Assembly: GCA_020854115.1 (NCBI GenBank)
Contig: JADZGC010000009.1
Coordinates: 1-36,543 of the forward strand
Length of the DNA: 36,543 bases
Source: a bacterium
GTDB lineage: Bacteria; Patescibacteriota; Saccharimonadia; CAILAD01; GCA-016700035
Reading direction: 5' to 3'
The position numbers and the translations under genes were made by a program. Of this stretch, positions 9,596-17,605 are shown in pieces. Every line of letters begins with the position of its first letter. The stretch's first letter is position 1. The notes under the pieces were generated by a model. It saw only the letters and a program-made list of their open reading frames with translations. It was not told where the DNA came from and did not search any database.

Positions 9596-11650
9596 TTATA
9601 ATAGCTCGGTGCGCTTTTGCCACCGAGGCTTGAGTAATTCATACTGCAACGCCGACAGCAGTAATAGAAACATTACCAATACATTCGTAACTGGCGCCAA
9701 CACTTGTGCTAAGAGATTTTGCTTGCTCTCCCAAGCGACAACCCAACGGGTCACAAGCTGCGAAAAAATTGCAATCAATGACAGCATAAACATACTTTGA
9801 TCTTCCTTCATGAGGGCAATAACTGCCACAACCAACGGTCCAGTAAATAGTACCAAGCCGCCAAGAAACAACATCCAAACAATGGGGAAGTGGAAACGGA
9901 GCGCAGGATAGAATCGCTGGATGTCGTCGGCCAAAATTGAACGCAGATCTTGATGATTTTGACTTGTAGCCAAATCACTTGCTCGATACAGGCCAGCCTT
10001 TAGCCCATACTGACGGGCTCGATGGAAGAGCTCATGCTCTTCGAGCGGACTAGCCCTAACCATGCGAAATCCGCCCAGATCACGCACAGGATCAATTGCT
10101 AGCGCCAACACGCCACCGTGCACGGTCGAGCGCTCTGGAGCGTGCATTTGCATGTAAGCCGCCGGATAGGCTGCCAAAAGTAAATATTGATTGTGACTAA
10201 GAATTGTTTTTTGAGCTAATGATTTGTTTTGATCGGCAGGTAGGAGCGAGAGTAACTGTAAACGCTTCGTCGACATGGTGCTCGCGATTTGCGCCAGTGC
10301 GTTCGGATGAAGTACTGTGTCTGCAGACAGCAAGACAGCGTATTCACCAGTCGCTTTCTTGATCAGCTGGTCTGCAGCCCAGGCTTGAATACTCCAGCCC
10401 TTTTTAATTGGATCAATTTTTGTTATACGCAGCTTCGGATCTTCGTACGATCGCGCAATTTTGAGCGTATTATCCTCAGAACTAAGATCTACGAACAAAA
10501 TCTCAAAATCAGGATAATTTTGACCGAGCGCTGCCAATAATGTACTCGCGATATTCTCCACCTGATTATAGGCGTAAATCAGTATGGAAATGCGCGGCCA
10601 CTCATCAAGTCGTGTGGTTGCTGGGCGACGGAAAAGTGCTAGATTGTACATAATTAGCCCCAACTGAGCAAAGCTAGTCAAGGTGGTAGTGATCAGAAAA
10701 ATCTCATACTTCGCCACACCAACCTGAAATGGGTCAATATTCCACAGAATAAGCTGTGTGAGCCAAAAACCGACGATAAAATTCAGCCACATGAAGTTTG
10801 TCCACCCTCGTCGATAAAGATGTGACCGCGCATCGGAAGTGTACTTGAGGAAAAAGCTGGCGTTGAGCACATAGGGGAGGAGCATGACTGCCGCCAAGAC
10901 CGTAAGCGGTGGTTGGATAAACGCCACGCTTAAGCACGACAAACTATACATGACGATCGTAAAACGAATCGTTTGCCGAGCACCCCATTGCGTAGCTATC
11001 GAACGAATACCAGCGGCTCGATCAGGCTCGATGTCCTGGATCGCCCCGAGAGCGTGTGAAGCCACACCCCAGAAGAAGAATGCTGTCAGCGGCAAATCAA
11101 GTATTTGATGCGTGGGGCCTACGAGCATACCTATGAATGCCGGTCCAACAAAATGCAATGATGAGTTGATTGAATCGAGCAAGGGGACCTCCTTGAAGCG
11201 CAAGCCTTTCAACGAATAGGTATGCGCCAACACCACCACCACGAGCATGGCAAGTAATCCGGCAGGCTCCAAAACAGTCCATATCCAAACCCCCCAAATC
11301 AGCGTTGTAGCTGCAATTGCCAGCCAAATAACATGACGCCGTTCAGGTGCGACAATACTACCCTCGATACCACCCTTGCGGTCATTTTGCAGATCAGATT
11401 CATAATCAAAGATATCATTAACGCCGTAGAGCAGAATATTATATGGAAAAAGAAAATAGCTAGCGAGAACCCAGAAGGTCATCGAGATCTGTCCGCCAGC
11501 GAAAAAATACGCCACTACAAAAGGCACTGCCGTATTGATCCAGCTGACCGGGCGACTGGCTAATAAAATAGCTCGCACACTCTCCAAAAAATCATCGCTT
11601 CGAGCGCGATTTTTTGGAGAGTGCTGTGGTTGCTTGATAGATTTTTTCAT
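9596..11650 (-). CDS. UbiA-type lycopene elongase fused to GT2 glycosyltransferase
   Basis: A 684-aa two-domain membrane protein. Residues ~25-330 form a UbiA prenyltransferase with both Asp motifs: NDIFDYESD (78-86) and DIEPD (206-210). Near lycopene-cyclase genes this subfamily adds C5 prenyl units to lycopene (CrtEb/lycopene elongase), giving C50 carotenoids. Residues ~354-590 are a GT2 glycosyltransferase (ISILIYAYNQ start, SAD metal-binding-type motif, EEHELFHRA), followed by C-terminal hydrophobic helices. Elongase and glycosyltransferase are usually separate genes, so this fusion implies sequential elongation and glycosylation. The start overlaps the upstream cyclase gene by 59 bp. The exact sugar and regiochemistry are unknown; a menaquinone-type UbiA is less likely given the context. 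Confidence 0.8.
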   Translation of the reverse strand: MKKSIKQPQHSPKNRARSDDFLESVRAILLASRPVSWINTAVPFVVAYFFAGGQISMTFWVLASYFLFPYNILLYGVNDIFDYESDLQNDRKGGIEGSIVAPERRHVIWLAIAATTLIWGVWIWTVLEPAGLLAMLVVVVLAHTYSLKGLRFKEVPLLDSINSSLHFVGPAFIGMLVGPTHQILDLPLTAFFFWGVASHALGAIQDIEPDRAAGIRSIATQWGARQTIRFTIVMYSLSCLSVAFIQPPLTVLAAVMLLPYVLNASFFLKYTSDARSHLYRRGWTNFMWLNFIVGFWLTQLILWNIDPFQVGVAKYEIFLITTTLTSFAQLGLIMYNLALFRRPATTRLDEWPRISILIYAYNQVENIASTLLAALGQNYPDFEILFVDLSSEDNTLKIARSYEDPKLRITKIDPIKKGWSIQAWAADQLIKKATGEYAVLLSADTVLHPNALAQIASTMSTKRLQLLSLLPADQNKSLAQKTILSHNQYLLLAAYPAAYMQMHAPERSTVHGGVLALAIDPVRDLGGFRMVRASPLEEHELFHRARQYGLKAGLYRASDLATSQNHQDLRSILADDIQRFYPALRFHFPIVWMLFLGGLVLFTGPLVVAVIALMKEDQSMFMLSLIAIFSQLVTRWVVAWESKQNLLAQVLAPVTNVLVMFLLLLSALQYELLKPRWQKRTELL

Positions 11651-11939
11651 ATTGTTTCAGCCAGTATTCATATAGTGCCTGGGCCATATACAATCCTACC
11701 ACCAAGTAGGCCATATCTTCTATCGGCCACGAGATCATTTTGATACCCAACACTTTATTCCAGTCGTAGCGCACAATCGGCAACGACGTCAGGTACGTGT
11801 TAAATACGACCATCATAAGGTAGCAAATAAGAGCAACTTTTAGGATTCGAGGAGTTGCTCGATAGCGTACTCGCTGAACAATAAGCCACGCGAAAAGCAT
11901 AAACACGAGACAGAGCAGGAGATAGATATACTGTTTCAT
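11592..11939 (-). CDS. Lycopene cyclase subunit (CrtYd/CrtYf-like)
   Basis: Small membrane protein (115 aa, three helices) of the heterodimeric lycopene cyclase domain family. The family pattern is visible: RYDWNKVLGIKMISWPIEDMAY, with the paired acidic residues of PIED. With its partner it cyclises lycopene or elongated C50 chains at the membrane. Its ATG overlaps the stop of the partner gene (ATGA), as expected for a stoichiometric heterodimer. The C-terminus is basic. Confidence 0.78.
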   Translation of the reverse strand: MKQYIYLLLCLVFMLFAWLIVQRVRYRATPRILKVALICYLMMVVFNTYLTSLPIVRYDWNKVLGIKMISWPIEDMAYLVVGLYMAQALYEYWLKQYEKIYQATTALSKKSRSKR

Positions 11940-12313
11940 TGCGTCGCTCGCGCTTTGGGGTGTTTTTCTTCTTGTGACTTATGCGCTTCACATTCTTCCA
12001 CAATGCGTGAAACAAGCAATATGACATAACTAAGGAGCGTCAGAAAGAGCACTTCCTCTATCGGGAAATCTGGAGTCAAAAAATACAACCCGAGCACGTA
12101 GCGTGGGTTCGCGAAGAATATCTTGAGCCATATCCCAGCTGCATACCAGATACTAAAGAACAGCACCAAGCAGCCAATCGTCGCGAGCGCAGCGCGACGG
12201 GACGGCACACCGCGCCATAGGAGCAATCTATATCGCCAATCAAGCAGCGCGAGTCCAGCCAGAGAAATGATCAGAATCAAGGCATATGCCCATGGAGTAT
12301 AGAGCCAAAACAT
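11936..12313 (-). CDS. Lycopene cyclase subunit (CrtYc/CrtYe-like)
   Basis: Partner subunit (125 aa from the chosen start) with three helices and the PIEE motif in FLTPDFPIEEVLF. Together with the coupled downstream subunit it makes a complete cyclase of the actinobacterial/archaeal type. Three in-frame Met codons compete (12340, 12322, 12313). I chose 12313, giving MFWLYTPW, because TATAAT at 12321-12326 lies 7 nt upstream, the leaderless geometry seen elsewhere here. The longer starts would overlap the divergent crtI remnant. The C-terminus is charged (EECEAHKSQEEKHPK). Confidence 0.78.
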   Translation of the reverse strand: MFWLYTPWAYALILIISLAGLALLDWRYRLLLWRGVPSRRAALATIGCLVLFFSIWYAAGIWLKIFFANPRYVLGLYFLTPDFPIEEVLFLTLLSYVILLVSRIVEECEAHKSQEEKHPKARATQ

Positions 12314-12320
12314 ATATTCC

Positions 12321-12326
12321 ATTATA
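12321..12326 (-). promoter_or_regulatory. -10 box for the leftward carotenoid arm
   Basis: On the minus strand TATAAT ends 7 nt before the ATG at 12313. It lies immediately upstream of the first codon of the divergent crtI remnant, so the two carotenoid arms share almost no intergenic space. Confidence 0.45.
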
Positions 12327-12338
12327 GTCTGATGAGAC

Positions 12339-13487
12339 ATGGCAAAACGCAAAAAAACAAATTATTGTAATTGGAGCTGACGTCGGCGGACTGTGTGCTG
12401 CTGCACGTCTCGCACGCGACGGACACGACGTATCGGTCTATGAAAAAGAATCGACCGTTGGCGGTCGAGCTCATCTCATCAAACAAGATGGCTATACGTT
12501 TGACACCGGCCCGACAATCCTAATGATGACCGATGTCCTTTACGACACCTTTGAATACCGTGGGGGTCGCTCGATGGCTGCGCATCACTTTCGTAATTAG
12601 AAACCAACTACAAGACCTGGTTTCCGGACGGAGAAACCATTGAGGTGAGTCCAACCTTCCTCGCTTCATTAAAGAACTTGCCCGCATAGATCCGAACGCA
12701 CCCGAGCAGTTCTACCGATATTTTGTAGATGCTGCAAAGATCTATCGACTCGCTCGATCGAATTCTATTGACAAAAACTTTGACAAATTCCGAGACTTCA
12801 TAGGTGTCAGTGCTGGCACAGAGCTCCTTAAGCGCAGGGGACTGATGAAACTATATTCATTCGTATCACGCTACTTTGATGGTTTGCCTCTGCGTCAACT
12901 CTTCAGCTTCCAATCGATGTATCGTGGGATCACGCCGTACGGGGCCCCGGCGGCATGCTCAGTTATAATGTGTACTTTTCGGATGACTTCAAGCACAACC
13001 TCGAGAAGATCTTCCACGCCCGCGTACTCCCAAAAGATCCAGCCTTTTATGTCCATATCCCGACTAAAACCGATCCTTCATTGGCGCCGAAGAACAAACA
13101 CGTAATCTACGTCCTTGTGCCCGTCCCAAGTCTGGAGGCAGAGGTTGATTGGCTGACAGCCATCGAACAAACTCACGAACGAGTACTTGAGCGGATGCAA
13201 GCCATCATGGACCTAAAGCTCAATAAAAAGATTGAGACCGAAGCTGTATTCACCCCCCGAAGATTTTCTCAATCGTTTCAATCTCACAGACAGCTCGGCG
13301 TTCGGCCTGAGCCACTATTTCTTTTAAGTCTGGCTATTCTCGCCCGCATAATGTCAGTCGTGACATCAAAGGCCTCTACTTTGTCGGCGCCTCAACTTAT
13401 CCCGGTAGTGGTGTACCAATGGTCACGCTTTCTGGTAAGCTGGTTGCAGAACGCATACAGAAAGATCTAGAGAATGGAACCAACTGA
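12339..13487 (+). pseudogene. crtI: Broken phytoene desaturase (crtI)
   Basis: Remnant of a FAD-dependent phytoene desaturase, which would convert phytoene to lycopene. The homologous pieces lie in order but in shifting frames: IIVIGADVGGL (dinucleotide fold, second Gly replaced by Asp) then FDTGPTILMM; LETNYKTWFPDGETIEVSP; RIDPNAPEQFYRYF through SFQSMYRGITPYGAP; SYNVYFSDDF through HVIYVLVPVP; then FTPEDFLNRFNL and GLYFVGASTYPGSGVPM to the ancestral TGA at 13485. I count frame changes near 12351-12357 (A7), ~12572, ~12655, ~13252 (C6) and ~13344, a TAA within the second piece (~12597), and an internal loss of roughly 150-200 codons near 12945. Some breaks sit in homopolymers, but the deletion and nonsense codon do not. 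Confidence 0.85.
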
Positions 13488-14553
13488 CAGACTTCAGCAA
13501 CGAATCAAGCGCATAAAGACCAGCATCGACGGAGAGCTTGCCAAGCTGTGGGACAAAAAGATCGACGAAGCGGCCAAGATCGACGCCCAATATAAGCGCC
13601 TCCTGAGCGAGATGAAAAAATTCAGCCTGCGGGGCGGGAAGCGGCTGCGTCCGTATTTAGTATCGCTCGGCTATGAAGTGGCAGGTGGTAAGCACGAAAA
13701 AGACGCTATTCAGCTCGGCGTAGCCTGGGAACTGTATCATCTGTTTGCTGTGATTCATGACGACATCATGGATCAAGATGACCAACGTTATGGCGGCCCA
13801 AATATTGCCGGTGCGTATCGGCGACTCCTGCGTCGCCGACTGACCGATTCGCAAACAGAACTCCATGCTCGCAATGTGGCTCTCCTAGCGGGCGACATTG
13901 CGCTCGGCATGTCGCACGAAGTCATAGACACGATGTCAGTGGACATCGAGCTCCGAGCCCAGCTCAAAAAAGAGCTTAATCAGCTTCATTTTCATCTCGC
14001 AGCCGGTCAGCAACTTGATGATCTAGCTAGTACCGAAGCACATCTCAAGATCGATAAGATCAAGAAAATCTACATGCTTAAGACCGCTCGTTACAGCATG
14101 ATCACACCCCTCCGCAGTGGCGCGATTCTTGCTGGCGGCAATCCTACCATCCTCAACATTCTCGGGCGCTACGGACTGCATGCTGGAATTGCCTATCAGA
14201 TTGTCGATGATCTGATAGGTATGTTTGGTACTACGCGTGAGATCGGCAAACCGAATATTTCTGACCTACGTGAAGGAAAGCGAACTCTCTTGATGCATTA
14301 TGGCTTTCAATTTGCTGACGATACTCAAACGACCATTCTAAAGAAATTCTTCGGTAACACCTCCGTCACCCAAAACGATCTCAAGCTCGTGCGCAAAATC
14401 CTTACAGGTAATGGTGCGAAAGCAAAGACGACCTTTTTGGCTCAAGAAGAAGGGAAGCGCGCCAAGCAAGCTATTGGTAAACTCGCGTTACCGGGTGGGC
14501 TTGGCGATGAATTTACCGCGCTCACTGACTATTTGGTGAGCCGAACGAAATGA
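13474..14553 (+). CDS. crtE: Geranylgeranyl diphosphate synthase (polyprenyl synthetase)
   Basis: Condenses IPP with allylic diphosphates to make the C20 precursor of carotenoids. The 359-aa protein has GGKRLRP (54-60, IPP binding), the first Asp-rich motif DDIMD (96-100) followed by Arg, and the second motif as DDLIG (~245-249), where the last Asp is replaced by Gly as in some actinobacterial IdsA-type enzymes. It is apparently intact, starts within the last codons of the broken crtI, and overlaps crtB by an ATGA, so the two synthases are coupled. It might also serve quinone or lipid-carrier synthesis, which would explain its retention. Confidence 0.88.
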   Translation: MEPTDRLQQRIKRIKTSIDGELAKLWDKKIDEAAKIDAQYKRLLSEMKKFSLRGGKRLRPYLVSLGYEVAGGKHEKDAIQLGVAWELYHLFAVIHDDIMDQDDQRYGGPNIAGAYRRLLRRRLTDSQTELHARNVALLAGDIALGMSHEVIDTMSVDIELRAQLKKELNQLHFHLAAGQQLDDLASTEAHLKIDKIKKIYMLKTARYSMITPLRSGAILAGGNPTILNILGRYGLHAGIAYQIVDDLIGMFGTTREIGKPNISDLREGKRTLLMHYGFQFADDTQTTILKKFFGNTSVTQNDLKLVRKILTGNGAKAKTTFLAQEEGKRAKQAIGKLALPGGLGDEFTALTDYLVSRTK

Positions 14554-15389
14554 GTGGTTTGCGCGCCAGCTACAAGGCGTGCGCTCGAATCACACGCCGA
14601 GCCAGTTCGAGCTTCGCACTCACAACCTATCTATTTGACACCGAAAGCCGACGAGCCATCCAGGCGCTGTATGCATTCTGTCGCATAGCCGATGATATTG
14701 CAGATGACCCCCAGCTGTCGGCACGGACTAAGCGACAGCGATTGTACGCCATGCGACGAGCACTCACCCTGCAAAAAATCCCGCCTATTCAACCCGAGAT
14801 ATGGCTAGCAGTCTTCGACACCGTTCGTCATCATCGACTCCCAATAGATGAACTCACCACAGTCATTGACGGTGTAACAAGTGATATTACATTTCGCCAA
14901 CCGCTCACCATTGGTGATCTCGATCGATATAGCTATCAGGTGGCTGGTGTGGTGGGAGTGCTCTGTGCGCGCATCCTTGGAGCCCCAAAGCGTTCGACAC
15001 TATTGGGGGCAAAGCAGCTTGGCATTGGCATGCAGTACGTCAACATAATCCGTGATTTCAGCGCCGACATCGACTTACAGCGCATTTACATCCCGCAAAG
15101 TGTTTTACGCGAAGCCCAACTCAGTCCGGCCGACCTCTTAGCACGTCGCAATCTAGTAGGACTGCAACGAGCTCTCACTATTCTGACCCGACGCGCCGAA
15201 ACGCATTTCGCACACGCCACCAAACACATCGACGATTTACACCCCCAATACCAACGACCCGTACGCTACGTGCTTGCGCAGTATAGCACGCTACTCGAAA
15301 GGATTAAGCAAAAGCAGTATACTGTATACAACCAGAGGGTGCGCTTGAGTCGACTCGAGAAACTCAAGCTCGTCTGGGATAATCGATAA
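14550..15389 (+). CDS. crtB: Phytoene synthase
   Basis: Joins two GGPP molecules head to head to form phytoene. The 279-aa length is typical. Both Asp-rich motifs are intact: DDIAD (48-52, within YAFCRIADDIADDP) and NIIRDFSADIDLQRIYIP (~165-182). The N-terminal FALTTYLF block is also typical. Squalene synthase is an alternative in this fold family, but linkage to GGPP synthase, lycopene cyclase and a crtI remnant favours phytoene synthase. Confidence 0.9.
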   Translation: MSGLRASYKACARITRRASSSFALTTYLFDTESRRAIQALYAFCRIADDIADDPQLSARTKRQRLYAMRRALTLQKIPPIQPEIWLAVFDTVRHHRLPIDELTTVIDGVTSDITFRQPLTIGDLDRYSYQVAGVVGVLCARILGAPKRSTLLGAKQLGIGMQYVNIIRDFSADIDLQRIYIPQSVLREAQLSPADLLARRNLVGLQRALTILTRRAETHFAHATKHIDDLHPQYQRPVRYVLAQYSTLLERIKQKQYTVYNQRVRLSRLEKLKLVWDNR

Positions 15390-15392
15390 TCA

Positions 15393-16715
15393 ATGGCACG
15401 AAACACTTCACCACACCACCTTGCCCGCCGTCACGTCACAGTAGACGGTATACGCTATTCACTCGAAAGCGGGCGTAAATTGCGACATATCCAGCCCACA
15501 GGCACCAAGCCAAGCAGCCATACAACAGCCCGTCACACTGAATACGACCCAACAGCGATGCACCCGCATCAAGTAAGCCATCCAGTCCTCCCGTTACCGA
15601 CCAGCCGTCAACACACAAATCGCCCTATCTCAGCGTGGCAAGTCATCACCCGGTCTCTACGCCAAAAGCAAGACCGACGAGCGTTTGACGCGGCACTCAT
15701 CATTTCATTATTATCGCCCGCATTCTGGCTTTGTGCAGCCCTACCTTGGGGCATCTTAGGTGTTACACAAAGTCAAAATCTGACAGTACAGCAAGGCTAT
15801 AGCCTCATTCGCGGACTTTTGACCGCCCCGTATAATCGGATTCTTCTCATCGCAGCCCTCGCTGTTGTTACGCTCTTGATTGTGTGGCTTATCAGACATG
15901 TCTTGCAGCTAGTCGGCTACGCTGCGAATCTTCGCCACATCGACCACCGTTCAGTAGACACCGAGGCATACAGTTGGCAAGCAATCGCGAAGTCCCACCG
16001 GCTCTTAGCGATTACATTGCTCGATATCTTGCTCGCGGCCGTCAGCCTCGGCGGACTCGTCATGATTACGCTGAAGATTATGAGTATTCAGACGGCACGC
16101 TTCGTAGCCTACCAGGGGCTCGTCGTCTATTTCGTCCTGTTATTTTGCTTACTCATCCTAGCTATATTGGCCGTACACCGAACACTGGCTCGCGTGATGT
16201 TGGCCGCAACAAATCAGTCAACTAGCTTCCTAATCGTTAAGAGCATAGGATTAAGTATCAAATCGCCATCCAAAACGCTTTGGTTTGGACTTTTTTGGTT
16301 ATTGGTCACACTAGCTACTGGCAGCCTAATTTTCGCAATTATATGGTCCACCACTAGCTACGGCCAGTTCACTGTTGGTCGCAACAACATCGCTAGAGCC
16401 GGCCTAACGCTCCTGTCTACATTCTTGCTCTATGCTACGATCGTCGGCTTTACACTTTGGTCGCAAGGGTATTGGTCGCTTGTGTACCACCATTTAGCGC
16501 ACATTAATTATCGATTGGCAGTTTCACAACTCATCGTCACACGACCACATGCCAAACCGCGGCGCTCAGCTATCTTACAAGTAGTCGTAGTAATGATTGG
16601 CGCTGGGATTAGTATCGTTATCGCGCTGTCGTTACTCAAGGCCCCCACTCAGCGCTTCTTCACCTCCCTCCAAGAACGACTGCCTGAGAATATTAGTGAT
16701 TTCATTGTGAGATAA
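15393..16715 (+). CDS. Hypothetical polytopic membrane protein
   Basis: I do not recognise this 440-aa protein. The first ~95 residues are polar, rich in His, Pro, Thr and Arg, and likely disordered and cytoplasmic. About seven hydrophobic helices follow (near 105-130, 150-170, 205-230, 240-262, 297-320, 335-355, 398-420). It begins 3 bp after crtB, so it may be co-transcribed with the carotenoid genes, but nothing in the sequence links it to carotenoid chemistry. Confidence 0.75.
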   Translation: MARNTSPHHLARRHVTVDGIRYSLESGRKLRHIQPTGTKPSSHTTARHTEYDPTAMHPHQVSHPVLPLPTSRQHTNRPISAWQVITRSLRQKQDRRAFDAALIISLLSPAFWLCAALPWGILGVTQSQNLTVQQGYSLIRGLLTAPYNRILLIAALAVVTLLIVWLIRHVLQLVGYAANLRHIDHRSVDTEAYSWQAIAKSHRLLAITLLDILLAAVSLGGLVMITLKIMSIQTARFVAYQGLVVYFVLLFCLLILAILAVHRTLARVMLAATNQSTSFLIVKSIGLSIKSPSKTLWFGLFWLLVTLATGSLIFAIIWSTTSYGQFTVGRNNIARAGLTLLSTFLLYATIVGFTLWSQGYWSLVYHHLAHINYRLAVSQLIVTRPHAKPRRSAILQVVVVMIGAGISIVIALSLLKAPTQRFFTSLQERLPENISDFIVR

Positions 16716-16840: not shown

Positions 16841-17026
16841 ATGAAACGACTGATCCGATATTTCAAAAGCTCTTATCACGAGCTTCGACGTGTAATCTGG
16901 CCAAACCGCCAACAAGCGATTTTTTTGACCAGCGTCGTCTTGATATTTACTGCAGTAGTAGCCATATACTTGGCCGGATTTGATCTATTGTTCCGTACGA
17001 TTCTCGAAAAACTGCTCACACGCTAA
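16841..17026 (+). CDS. secE: Protein translocase subunit SecE
   Basis: Clamp subunit of the SecYEG translocon. The 61-aa protein has the single-helix form of SecE: an amphipathic N-terminal part with the conserved ELRRVIWPNRQQA, then one membrane helix (FLTSVVLIFTAVVAIYLAGF). It sits directly before nusG, the standard bacterial order. No Shine-Dalgarno sequence precedes the ATG. Confidence 0.92.
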   Translation: MKRLIRYFKSSYHELRRVIWPNRQQAIFLTSVVLIFTAVVAIYLAGFDLLFRTILEKLLTR

Positions 17027-17068: not shown

Positions 17069-17605
17069 ATGAAGACCACATCACCAGGCAATTGGTACGT
17101 CATTCACACCTACTCCGGCTATGAGGATCAGGTGGCACAAAACCTTCTGCATCGTATTGACACGATGGGCATGAAAGATAAGGTTTTTGATGTCGTCGTC
17201 CCGAAGGAAAACCAGATCGAGATCAAAAACGGCAAACGCCGAATTGTCGAGCGCAAAATCTTCCCAGGATATATTCTCGTCAACATGGATGTCACCGAAG
17301 ATAGCTGGTACATCGTACGAAATACACCGAATGTTACCGGATTCGTGGGTACCGGCACCACACCAAGCCCTATGAGCGAAGATGAGATTAAGCTCATCCA
17401 AAAGCGCATGGGTGTTGAAGAGCCGAAGTTCATGATCGACTACTCGATTGGTGAGACAGTCAACATCACCGACGGACCTTTCAAAGGCTTCGACGGACAA
17501 ATCAGCGAAATCGACGAAGCTAAAGGCAAGATCAAGGTACTCGTCTCGATGTTTGGTCGTGAAACCCCAGTAGAGCTCGACAGCTTGCAGGTAAAGAAGA
17601 TTTAA
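17069..17605 (+). CDS. nusG: Transcription elongation/antitermination factor NusG
   Basis: Binds RNA polymerase and couples it to ribosomes or Rho. The 178-aa protein has an NGN domain (WYVIHTYSGYEDQVAQNL at the N-terminus; FPGYILVNMD; VTGFVGTGTTPSPM) and a C-terminal KOW domain (GETVNITDGPFKGFDGQISEID). Length and order are standard. Its 3' flank leads into the first L1-like hairpin. Confidence 0.97.
   Translation: MKTTSPGNWYVIHTYSGYEDQVAQNLLHRIDTMGMKDKVFDVVVPKENQIEIKNGKRRIVERKIFPGYILVNMDVTEDSWYIVRNTPNVTGFVGTGTTPSPMSEDEIKLIQKRMGVEEPKFMIDYSIGETVNITDGPFKGFDGQISEIDEAKGKIKVLVSMFGRETPVELDSLQVKKI

What the first reader, a model, noticed from the sequence alone, without database searches (positions are those of the whole stretch)
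9596..11650. Lycopene elongase fused to a GT2 glycosyltransferase
One 684-aa frame joins a UbiA domain with both Asp motifs (78-86, 206-210) to a GT2 domain (~354-590). In characterised C50 pathways elongase and glycosyltransferase are separate proteins. A fusion predicts direct channelling from prenyl addition to sugar capping of the new end group.
Basis: partly seen in the sequence, partly recalled or inferred. Interest (0 to 1): 0.62.

Follow-up and report, generated by a model that had tools for sequence, protein, structure and literature searches.

The report
Carotenoid elongase fused to resident glycosyltransferase-like protein
In one order of tiny Saccharibacteria-like bacteria, a carotenoid-lengthening enzyme is fused end to end with an older membrane protein of the glycosyltransferase fold that already sat at that chromosomal spot; the fusion is real and conserved, but the second half outlives the carotenoid genes, so it is probably not a dedicated pigment-capping enzyme, and in this genome the pigment pathway is itself broken.

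Summary
In detail: one 684-aa frame, on the MINUS strand, joins a UbiA prenyltransferase of the CrtEb (C50 lycopene elongase) family to a GT2-fold domain. It is a clade-wide protein: 14 of 17 genomes of the window's order carry it, none of ~376 others in the class. The interpretation (channelling from prenyl addition to sugar capping) is only weakly supported. In other families of the class an unfused GT2 sits in the same slot (histidine kinase – GT – secE – nusG), mostly in genomes without crtI; the fusion occupies that slot with a C50 crt cluster inserted between it and secE, and no fusion genome has a separate copy. In three genomes the whole crt cluster is gone but the fusion remains; in the close pair, the GT half is under purifying selection (dN/dS 0.12) while the UbiA half has lost its first Asp motif and looks relaxed (0.52). 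All fusions lack the first Asp of DxD and the Lys of WxGKxxA. In the window's own genome crtI is a multiply frameshifted pseudogene with no second copy found. Best reading: an insertion-born fusion of a C50 elongase with a resident, functionally independent GT-like protein.

The parts
9596..11650 (-). fusion gene, 684 aa: CrtEb-type UbiA elongase + GT2-fold membrane protein
10739..11587 (-). UbiA/CrtEb half, residues 22-304 (Asp motifs 78-86 and 206-214 at nt 11419-11393 and 11035-11009)
   Evidence: NCBIfam NF009608 309 bits over cut-off; motifs
10634..10714 (-). linker transmembrane helix, residues 313-339, followed by FRRPATTR (positive side); probably the resident GT's own N-terminal anchor
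   Evidence: AlphaFold2 model; inference from single-TM N-termini of stand-alone GTs
9896..10597 (-). GT-A (GT2) core, residues 352-585; SADT at 442-445 in place of DxD, EEHEL at 537-541
9635..9889 (-). three C-terminal transmembrane helices, residues 588-672
11592..11939 (-). second lycopene-cyclase-domain protein (CycB), overlaps the fusion start by 59 nt
   Evidence: Pfam Lycopene_cyc, TIGR03462 over cut-off
11936..12352 (-). first lycopene-cyclase-domain protein (CycA)
   Evidence: TIGR03462 40.3 bits over cut-off 39.4
12343..13475 (+). crtI phytoene desaturase PSEUDOGENE: fragments in all three frames, in-frame stops, ~115-codon deletion, GxGxxG changed to GADVGG
13474..14553 (+). polyprenyl diphosphate synthase (crtE-like)
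   Evidence: Pfam polyprenyl_synt
14550..15389 (+). squalene/phytoene synthase family gene (crtB position)
   Evidence: Pfam SQS_PSY 215.6 bits; best NCBIfam HpnD, below cut-off
15393..16715 (+). membrane protein of unknown family between the crt cluster and secE, kept as a scar in crt-less relatives
16841..17026 (+). secE, the anchor gene of the ancestral GT slot
   Evidence: Pfam SecE 64.5 bits; synteny
17069..17605 (+). nusG, second anchor of the slot (followed by the rplK and rplA homologues)

Best explanation
The gene is an end-to-end fusion of two complete membrane proteins. The N-terminal half is a CrtEb-type lycopene elongase that came with a C50 carotenoid cluster (crtI-crtE-crtB diverging from CycA-CycB-elongase). 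The C-terminal half is a resident GT2-fold membrane protein of the class, whose ancestral slot is histidine kinase - GT - secE - nusG. The divergent cluster was inserted between this GT and secE, which put the elongase directly upstream of the GT on the same strand, and the two reading frames merged (inferred from synteny). Where the cluster is intact, the UbiA half most likely adds C5 units from DMAPP to the ends of lycopene, before the two cyclase subunits close the rings (family knowledge, not tested). The GT half, held on the cytosolic side by its own anchor helix, most likely keeps its older, carotenoid-independent role in modifying a membrane lipid or envelope component (inferred); its acceptor is unknown and its catalytic motifs are altered. 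In the window's own genome crtI is a pseudogene, so the elongase has no home-made lycopene.
For: Synteny: stand-alone GT convergent with a histidine kinase and divergent from secE-nusG in other families; G002 and G004 keep the kinase next to the fusion. Unfused cluster with the same divergent layout in G026, elsewhere in the genome (L183); genomes G025, G031, G047, G049, G052 hold both parts unfused at separate loci. Mutual exclusion: profile A3 of the stand-alone GT hits 76 of 195 class genomes strongly (at least 283 bits); in the 14 fusion genomes the only hit is the fusion (89-150 bits). Tree: fusion GT halves and nusG-slot GTs on one side of a branch, support 97/94, with a shared IRxxYP-like motif. 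Independence from carotenoids: 58 of the 76 stand-alone holders have no crtI; the fusion remains in G002, G007 and G013 after loss of crtI, crtB and the cyclases at the locus. Selection in G007/G013: GT half 5 nonsynonymous / 13 synonymous (dN/dS 0.12, p=3e-5 against neutrality), UbiA half 14/9 (0.52, p=0.10) with motif NDIFDYESD lost. UbiA tree places the elongase with CrtEb-type, away from the haloarchaeal LyeJ-type.
Against: The orthology tree is unrooted, has long branches and gets its 97/94 support only after removing four distant Flavobacterium rows; with them the grouping is not recovered. By profile score the fusion GT halves are nearer to some unrelated stand-alone GTs (L043 184 bits, L058 166 bits) than to the nusG-slot GTs (126 bits at most). 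Outside the order, GT presence is associated with crtI (18 of 22 against 58 of 156 genomes, p=1e-4), though family membership confounds this. The contrast in dN/dS between halves rests on 41 substitutions (Fisher p=0.058). The Dormiibacterota contig L035 carries a similar fusion, so fusion may have some adaptive reason.
Confidence: 0.62

Rival explanations
1. One reading: a bifunctional elongase-glycosyltransferase that adds the C5 unit and then glucosylates the new end-group hydroxyl, with channelling between the halves.
For: Conserved fusion in all 10 crtI-bearing genomes of the order that were examined; GT-A fold; weak similarity to the carotenoid 2'-O-glycosyltransferase CruG (55 bits, cut-off 600); association of the resident GT with crtI across the class; a similar fusion beside a cyclase gene in a Dormiibacterota contig.
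Against: GT orthologues mostly without crtI; fusion retained and GT half constrained after crt loss; DxD and WxGKxxA altered in every fusion, more so in a sub-clade that still has an intact pathway (L009-L011); cyclisation must come between the two steps; crtI broken in this genome.
Confidence: 0.2
2. The GT half is a catalytically dead GT2-fold domain kept as a structural or binding module, not an enzyme.
For: First Asp of DxD and the Lys of WxGKxxA are missing in all 15 fusions; one sub-clade also changes the uridine-site Asp (TDLGS to ANLDN); several stand-alone orthologues also lack the first Asp (GVDT, GVDV) and the ED pair.
Against: The second Asp of DxD (D444) is invariant in all 15 fusions and an ED/EE/ND/EN pair is kept in all of the order's fusions; most stand-alone orthologues keep DVDT and GK.
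Confidence: 0.2
3. Decaying remnant: in the window's lineage both halves are on the way out after the loss of crtI.
For: crtI carries frameshifts, stops and a ~115-codon deletion with no second copy; the crtB-position branch is 2.5 times that of the nearest relative in a three-taxon comparison; related genomes deleted the cluster.
Against: The fusion, both cyclases, crtE and the crtB-position gene are full-length and open; Asp motifs intact; UbiA, GT and crtE branches are not consistently longer than in the nearest relative (ratios 1.2, 1.3, 0.6).
Confidence: 0.12

Closest known systems
CrtEb / LbtC lycopene elongase (UbiA family, NCBIfam NF009608 PRK13105)
   Same: Score over the curated cut-off, both Asp-rich motifs, position after a CarR-type cyclase pair, tree placement with an Arthrobacter C50-type elongase.
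   Different: Extended at the C-terminus by a complete GT2-fold membrane protein; desaturase partner is a pseudogene in this genome.
LbtBC of Dietzia sp. CQ4 (cyclase subunit fused to elongase; PMC6669644)
   Same: A natural fusion of a C50 elongase with a neighbouring protein; the Arthrobacter plasmid locus L175 shows the same type.
   Different: Partner is the cyclase upstream of the elongase, not a GT-fold protein downstream of it.
Carotenoid glycosyltransferases CrtX / CruG
   Same: Weak profile similarity of the GT half to CruG (55 bits) and HpnB (89 bits).
   Different: Far below the curated cut-offs (600, 379), altered catalytic motifs, orthologues not tied to crt genes.
Stand-alone GT2 beside secE-nusG in other families of the class (unnamed; profile A3)
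   Same: Same chromosomal slot, mutually exclusive with the fusion, grouped with the GT half in the reduced tree.
   Different: Not fused; ED pair absent; most keep DxD and WxGKxxA.
Bacterioruberin genes (lyeJ, crtD, cruF) reported in Lake Baikal Patescibacteria (PMC9948471)
   Same: C50-type elongase genes in Saccharibacteria and other Patescibacteria.
   Different: LyeJ-type acyclic pathway, no fusion reported; here a CrtEb-type with a cyclase pair.

Membership tests
CrtEb-type lycopene elongase (UbiA superfamily) | Curated family score (NF009608 cut-off 217 bits) | tested here: met
   309.3 bits, residues 22-304
CrtEb-type lycopene elongase (UbiA superfamily) | Two Asp-rich metal-binding motifs | tested here: met
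   NDIFDYESD 78-86, DIEPD 206-210
CrtEb-type lycopene elongase (UbiA superfamily) | Groups with elongases of cyclic C50 clusters rather than LyeJ | tested here: met
   UbiA tree, starred 100/100 split; few named references available
CrtEb-type lycopene elongase (UbiA superfamily) | Context: complete crtE-B-I and cyclase set in the same genome (typical of the pathway, not of the enzyme itself) | tested here: inconclusive
   crtI is a pseudogene in this genome; complete sets in relatives such as L032 and L034
CrtEb-type lycopene elongase (UbiA superfamily) | Prenylation of lycopene | not testable with these tools
   needs expression and LC-MS
GT2 / GT-A glycosyltransferase | Sequence family and fold | tested here: met
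   Pfam PF00535 62 bits; Foldseek hits to cellulose and hyaluronan synthases, SpsA, PcManGT
GT2 / GT-A glycosyltransferase | DxD metal motif | tested here: not met
   SADT 442-445; only the second Asp kept; same in all fusions. So it is filed as GT2-fold, not as a proven GT2 enzyme
GT2 / GT-A glycosyltransferase | Catalytic-base acidic pair (ED) | tested here: inconclusive
   EE at 537-538 here, ED in most relatives
Carotenoid glycosyltransferase (CrtX/CruG) | Curated family score | tested here: not met
   CruG 55 bits against 600
Carotenoid glycosyltransferase (CrtX/CruG) | Occurrence tied to a carotenoid pathway | tested here: not met
   58 of 76 genomes with the stand-alone orthologue lack crtI; fusion kept without crt genes in three genomes; a statistical association with crtI exists but is confounded by family
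Resident secE-nusG-slot GT of the class | Same slot between histidine kinase and secE-nusG | tested here: met
   kinase kept in G002 and G004, absent in the window
Resident secE-nusG-slot GT of the class | Phylogenetic grouping | tested here: inconclusive
   97/94 without Flavobacterium rows, not recovered with them
LbtBC-type fusion | CarR-type cyclase domain in the same chain as the elongase | tested here: not met
   cyclase domains are separate ORFs 11592-11939 and 11936-12352

The most novel reading that the evidence does not exclude
After fusion the GT half was co-opted: in crt-intact relatives, and in this crtI-less cell on lycopene or other carotenoids taken from a host bacterium, the fused protein makes a C50 glycoside in one membrane enzyme, a route not described in any characterised C50 pathway.
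Probability: 0.1. Interest if true: 0.72.

Novelty: new variant of a known kind. Interest (0 to 1): 0.45.

Why it matters
The domain pair was not found in the literature that could be searched here, and it shows how a gene cluster that lands beside a resident gene can create a fused protein whose two halves then follow separate fates: the resident half is kept and constrained while the newcomer half decays when its pathway is lost. It warns against inferring substrate channelling from a fusion alone. It also shows that cyclic C50 carotenoid clusters are common in Saccharibacteria-like genomes of about 1 Mb and less, and are repeatedly lost.

Tried and rejected
Assembly chimera: rejected, conserved in 14 genomes and in separate named contigs. 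Menaquinone-type UbiA: rejected, CrtEb family score over cut-off and cyclase neighbours. LyeJ/bacterioruberin type: rejected by score and tree. Rhodopsin link: no rhodopsin in the own genome or the order; one in 61 genomes. Relative-rate test for decay in the window genome: mixed ratios, few shared genes, not informative. Common origin of the Dormiibacterota fusion L035: its GT half does not group with the others, but a single clade is not rejected (AU p=0.20), so left open. True absence of the fusion in G003, G009 and G016: cannot be read, nusG is not found there either. Literature searches for a Saccharibacterial C50 fusion found none.

Full report
OBSERVATION. The frame 9596-11650 is real and lies on the minus strand. 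Residues 22-304 match the curated prenyltransferase family NF009608/PRK13105 at 309 bits (cut-off 217) while the related PRK12875 and PRK13595 stay below their cut-offs; Pfam gives UbiA at 42-285 and GT2 at 355-463. An AlphaFold2 model from window and public-locus homologues is confident over both halves (pLDDT 89.9, pTM 0.85) and shows the UbiA helices, one linker helix (313-339), the GT-A core and three C-terminal helices; Foldseek finds GT2 enzymes such as cellulose synthase, PcManGT, hyaluronan synthase and SpsA.

ORGANISM. The window is part of a 790-kb, 99.5% complete genome. Its order relatives include public contigs titled Candidatus Saccharibacteria and Patescibacteria, so it is most likely an uncultured Saccharibacteria-like bacterium (inference).

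DISTRIBUTION. Full-length fusions occur in 14 of 17 genomes of the order, over four families; the 13 others are 37-59% identical to the window's. In 393 genomes of the class no genome outside the order has the fusion; about 30 have a stand-alone elongase instead. The three order members without it also lack a detectable nusG, so the locus may simply be unassembled. One GC-rich (70%) Dormiibacterota contig, L035, carries a similar fusion behind a cyclase-domain gene; its GT half does not group with the others, but a common clade is not rejected (AU p=0.20).

CONTEXT. Upstream on the minus strand are two overlapping lycopene-cyclase-domain ORFs, on the plus strand a crtI relic, a polyprenyl diphosphate synthase and a squalene/phytoene synthase family gene. 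This is the gene set of cyclic C50 carotenoid clusters; an Arthrobacter plasmid has crtE-crtB-crtI-CycA and a CycB-elongase fusion of the LbtBC type (LbtBC: PMC6669644). In the UbiA tree the fusions fall with these CrtEb-type elongases, apart from a group with the haloarchaeal LyeJ-type.

THE PATHWAY IS BROKEN HERE. crtI survives only as pieces in all three frames between 12343 and 13475, with in-frame stops, about 115 codons missing and the FAD motif GxGxxG changed to GADVGG. No other desaturase-like gene was found in the genome. Relatives have an intact crtI in the same place. So the elongase of this cell has no home-made lycopene, as far as this assembly shows.

WHERE THE GT HALF COMES FROM. 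In other families of the class a stand-alone GT2 of 355-547 aa lies convergent with a histidine kinase and divergent from secE and nusG. In the window's order the fusion holds that slot: the kinase is still next to it in G002 and G004, and secE-nusG-rplK-rplA follow after the inserted crt genes and a membrane protein. A profile of the stand-alone GT finds it strongly in 76 of 195 genomes; in the 14 fusion genomes the only match is the fusion. The slot position itself was checked in 13 of the 76. Genome G026 carries the same divergent crt cluster with an unfused elongase elsewhere (L183), and several genomes hold elongase and GT at separate loci. The simplest history is insertion of the divergent cluster between GT and secE, followed by merging of the elongase with the downstream GT. 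A GT tree puts fused and slot GTs on one side of a branch (97/94) when four distant Flavobacterium rows are left out but not when they are kept; profile scores also show some unrelated GTs nearer to the fused halves. Synteny and mutual exclusion therefore carry the argument more than the tree.

IS IT A CAROTENOID GLYCOSYLTRANSFERASE? Against: 58 of the 76 stand-alone holders have no crtI. In G002, G007 and G013 crtI, crtB and the cyclases are gone but the fusion remains. Between G007 and G013 the GT half shows 5 nonsynonymous and 13 synonymous changes (dN/dS 0.12; p=3e-5 against neutrality), the UbiA half 14 and 9 (0.52; p=0.10), and the first Asp motif of UbiA is lost; the contrast between halves is Fisher p=0.058. 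All fusions lack the first Asp of DxD and the Lys of WxGKxxA that stand-alone relatives mostly have, and a sub-clade with an intact pathway has changed the uridine-site Asp as well. For: across the class outside the order, GT presence goes with crtI (18 of 22 against 58 of 156, p=1e-4), though this is confounded by family; inside family f7 of the first 61 genomes p=0.11. Co-option is therefore possible but not needed.

MECHANISM. Shown: two complete modules in one chain, conserved order-wide, GT half selected without the pathway in one pair. Inferred: cytosolic placement of the GT core through the anchor helix and the basic stretch FRRPATTR; UbiA prenylation of lycopene from DMAPP (family knowledge); a carotenoid-independent acceptor for the GT half. 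Channelling from prenyl addition to capping is unlikely as a design principle because ring closure by the cyclase pair lies between the steps.

NOVELTY. The parts are known families; fusions of C50 elongases are known (LbtBC). The UbiA+GT2 pairing, its apparent origin by insertion next to a resident gene and its survival after pathway loss were not found in the searched literature. Bacterioruberin-type genes have been reported in Baikal Patescibacteria (PMC9948471).

Noticed in passing
window 12343-13475 (+): crtI pseudogene in the middle of an otherwise open carotenoid cluster; the ORF 12955-13470 is one of its fragments.
   Followed up: yes
L133 (G007), L134 (G013), L135 (G002): Whole crt cluster deleted while the fusion and the neighbouring membrane-protein gene remain as scars; UbiA motif lost in the first two.
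   Followed up: yes
window 14550-15389 (+): The synthase in the crtB position scores best against HpnD (presqualene diphosphate synthase, below cut-off) and is only about 27% identical to the crtB of other order members, so this family may have swapped its synthase.
   Followed up: partly
L022-L030, profile A3: A GT2 next to secE-nusG, convergent with a PAS histidine kinase, is widespread in the class; function unknown; some copies lack the first Asp of DxD.
   Followed up: partly
L035:4123-6114: GC-rich Dormiibacterota contig with a second UbiA+GT-like fusion; the GT part is a weak Glyco_transf_21 match with TADS in place of DxD.
   Followed up: partly
L044, L045, L049, L055, L059, L060: LyeJ-type elongases, most of them near a crtI, in other Patescibacteria: a separate acyclic C50-like set.
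   Followed up: no
G005:C10:7420-9851: A second crtI with a second, more distant UbiA in the same genome as a fusion.
   Followed up: no
G022:C7:18698-19345 (L131): The only rhodopsin among 61 relatives, in a genome without crtI.
   Followed up: no
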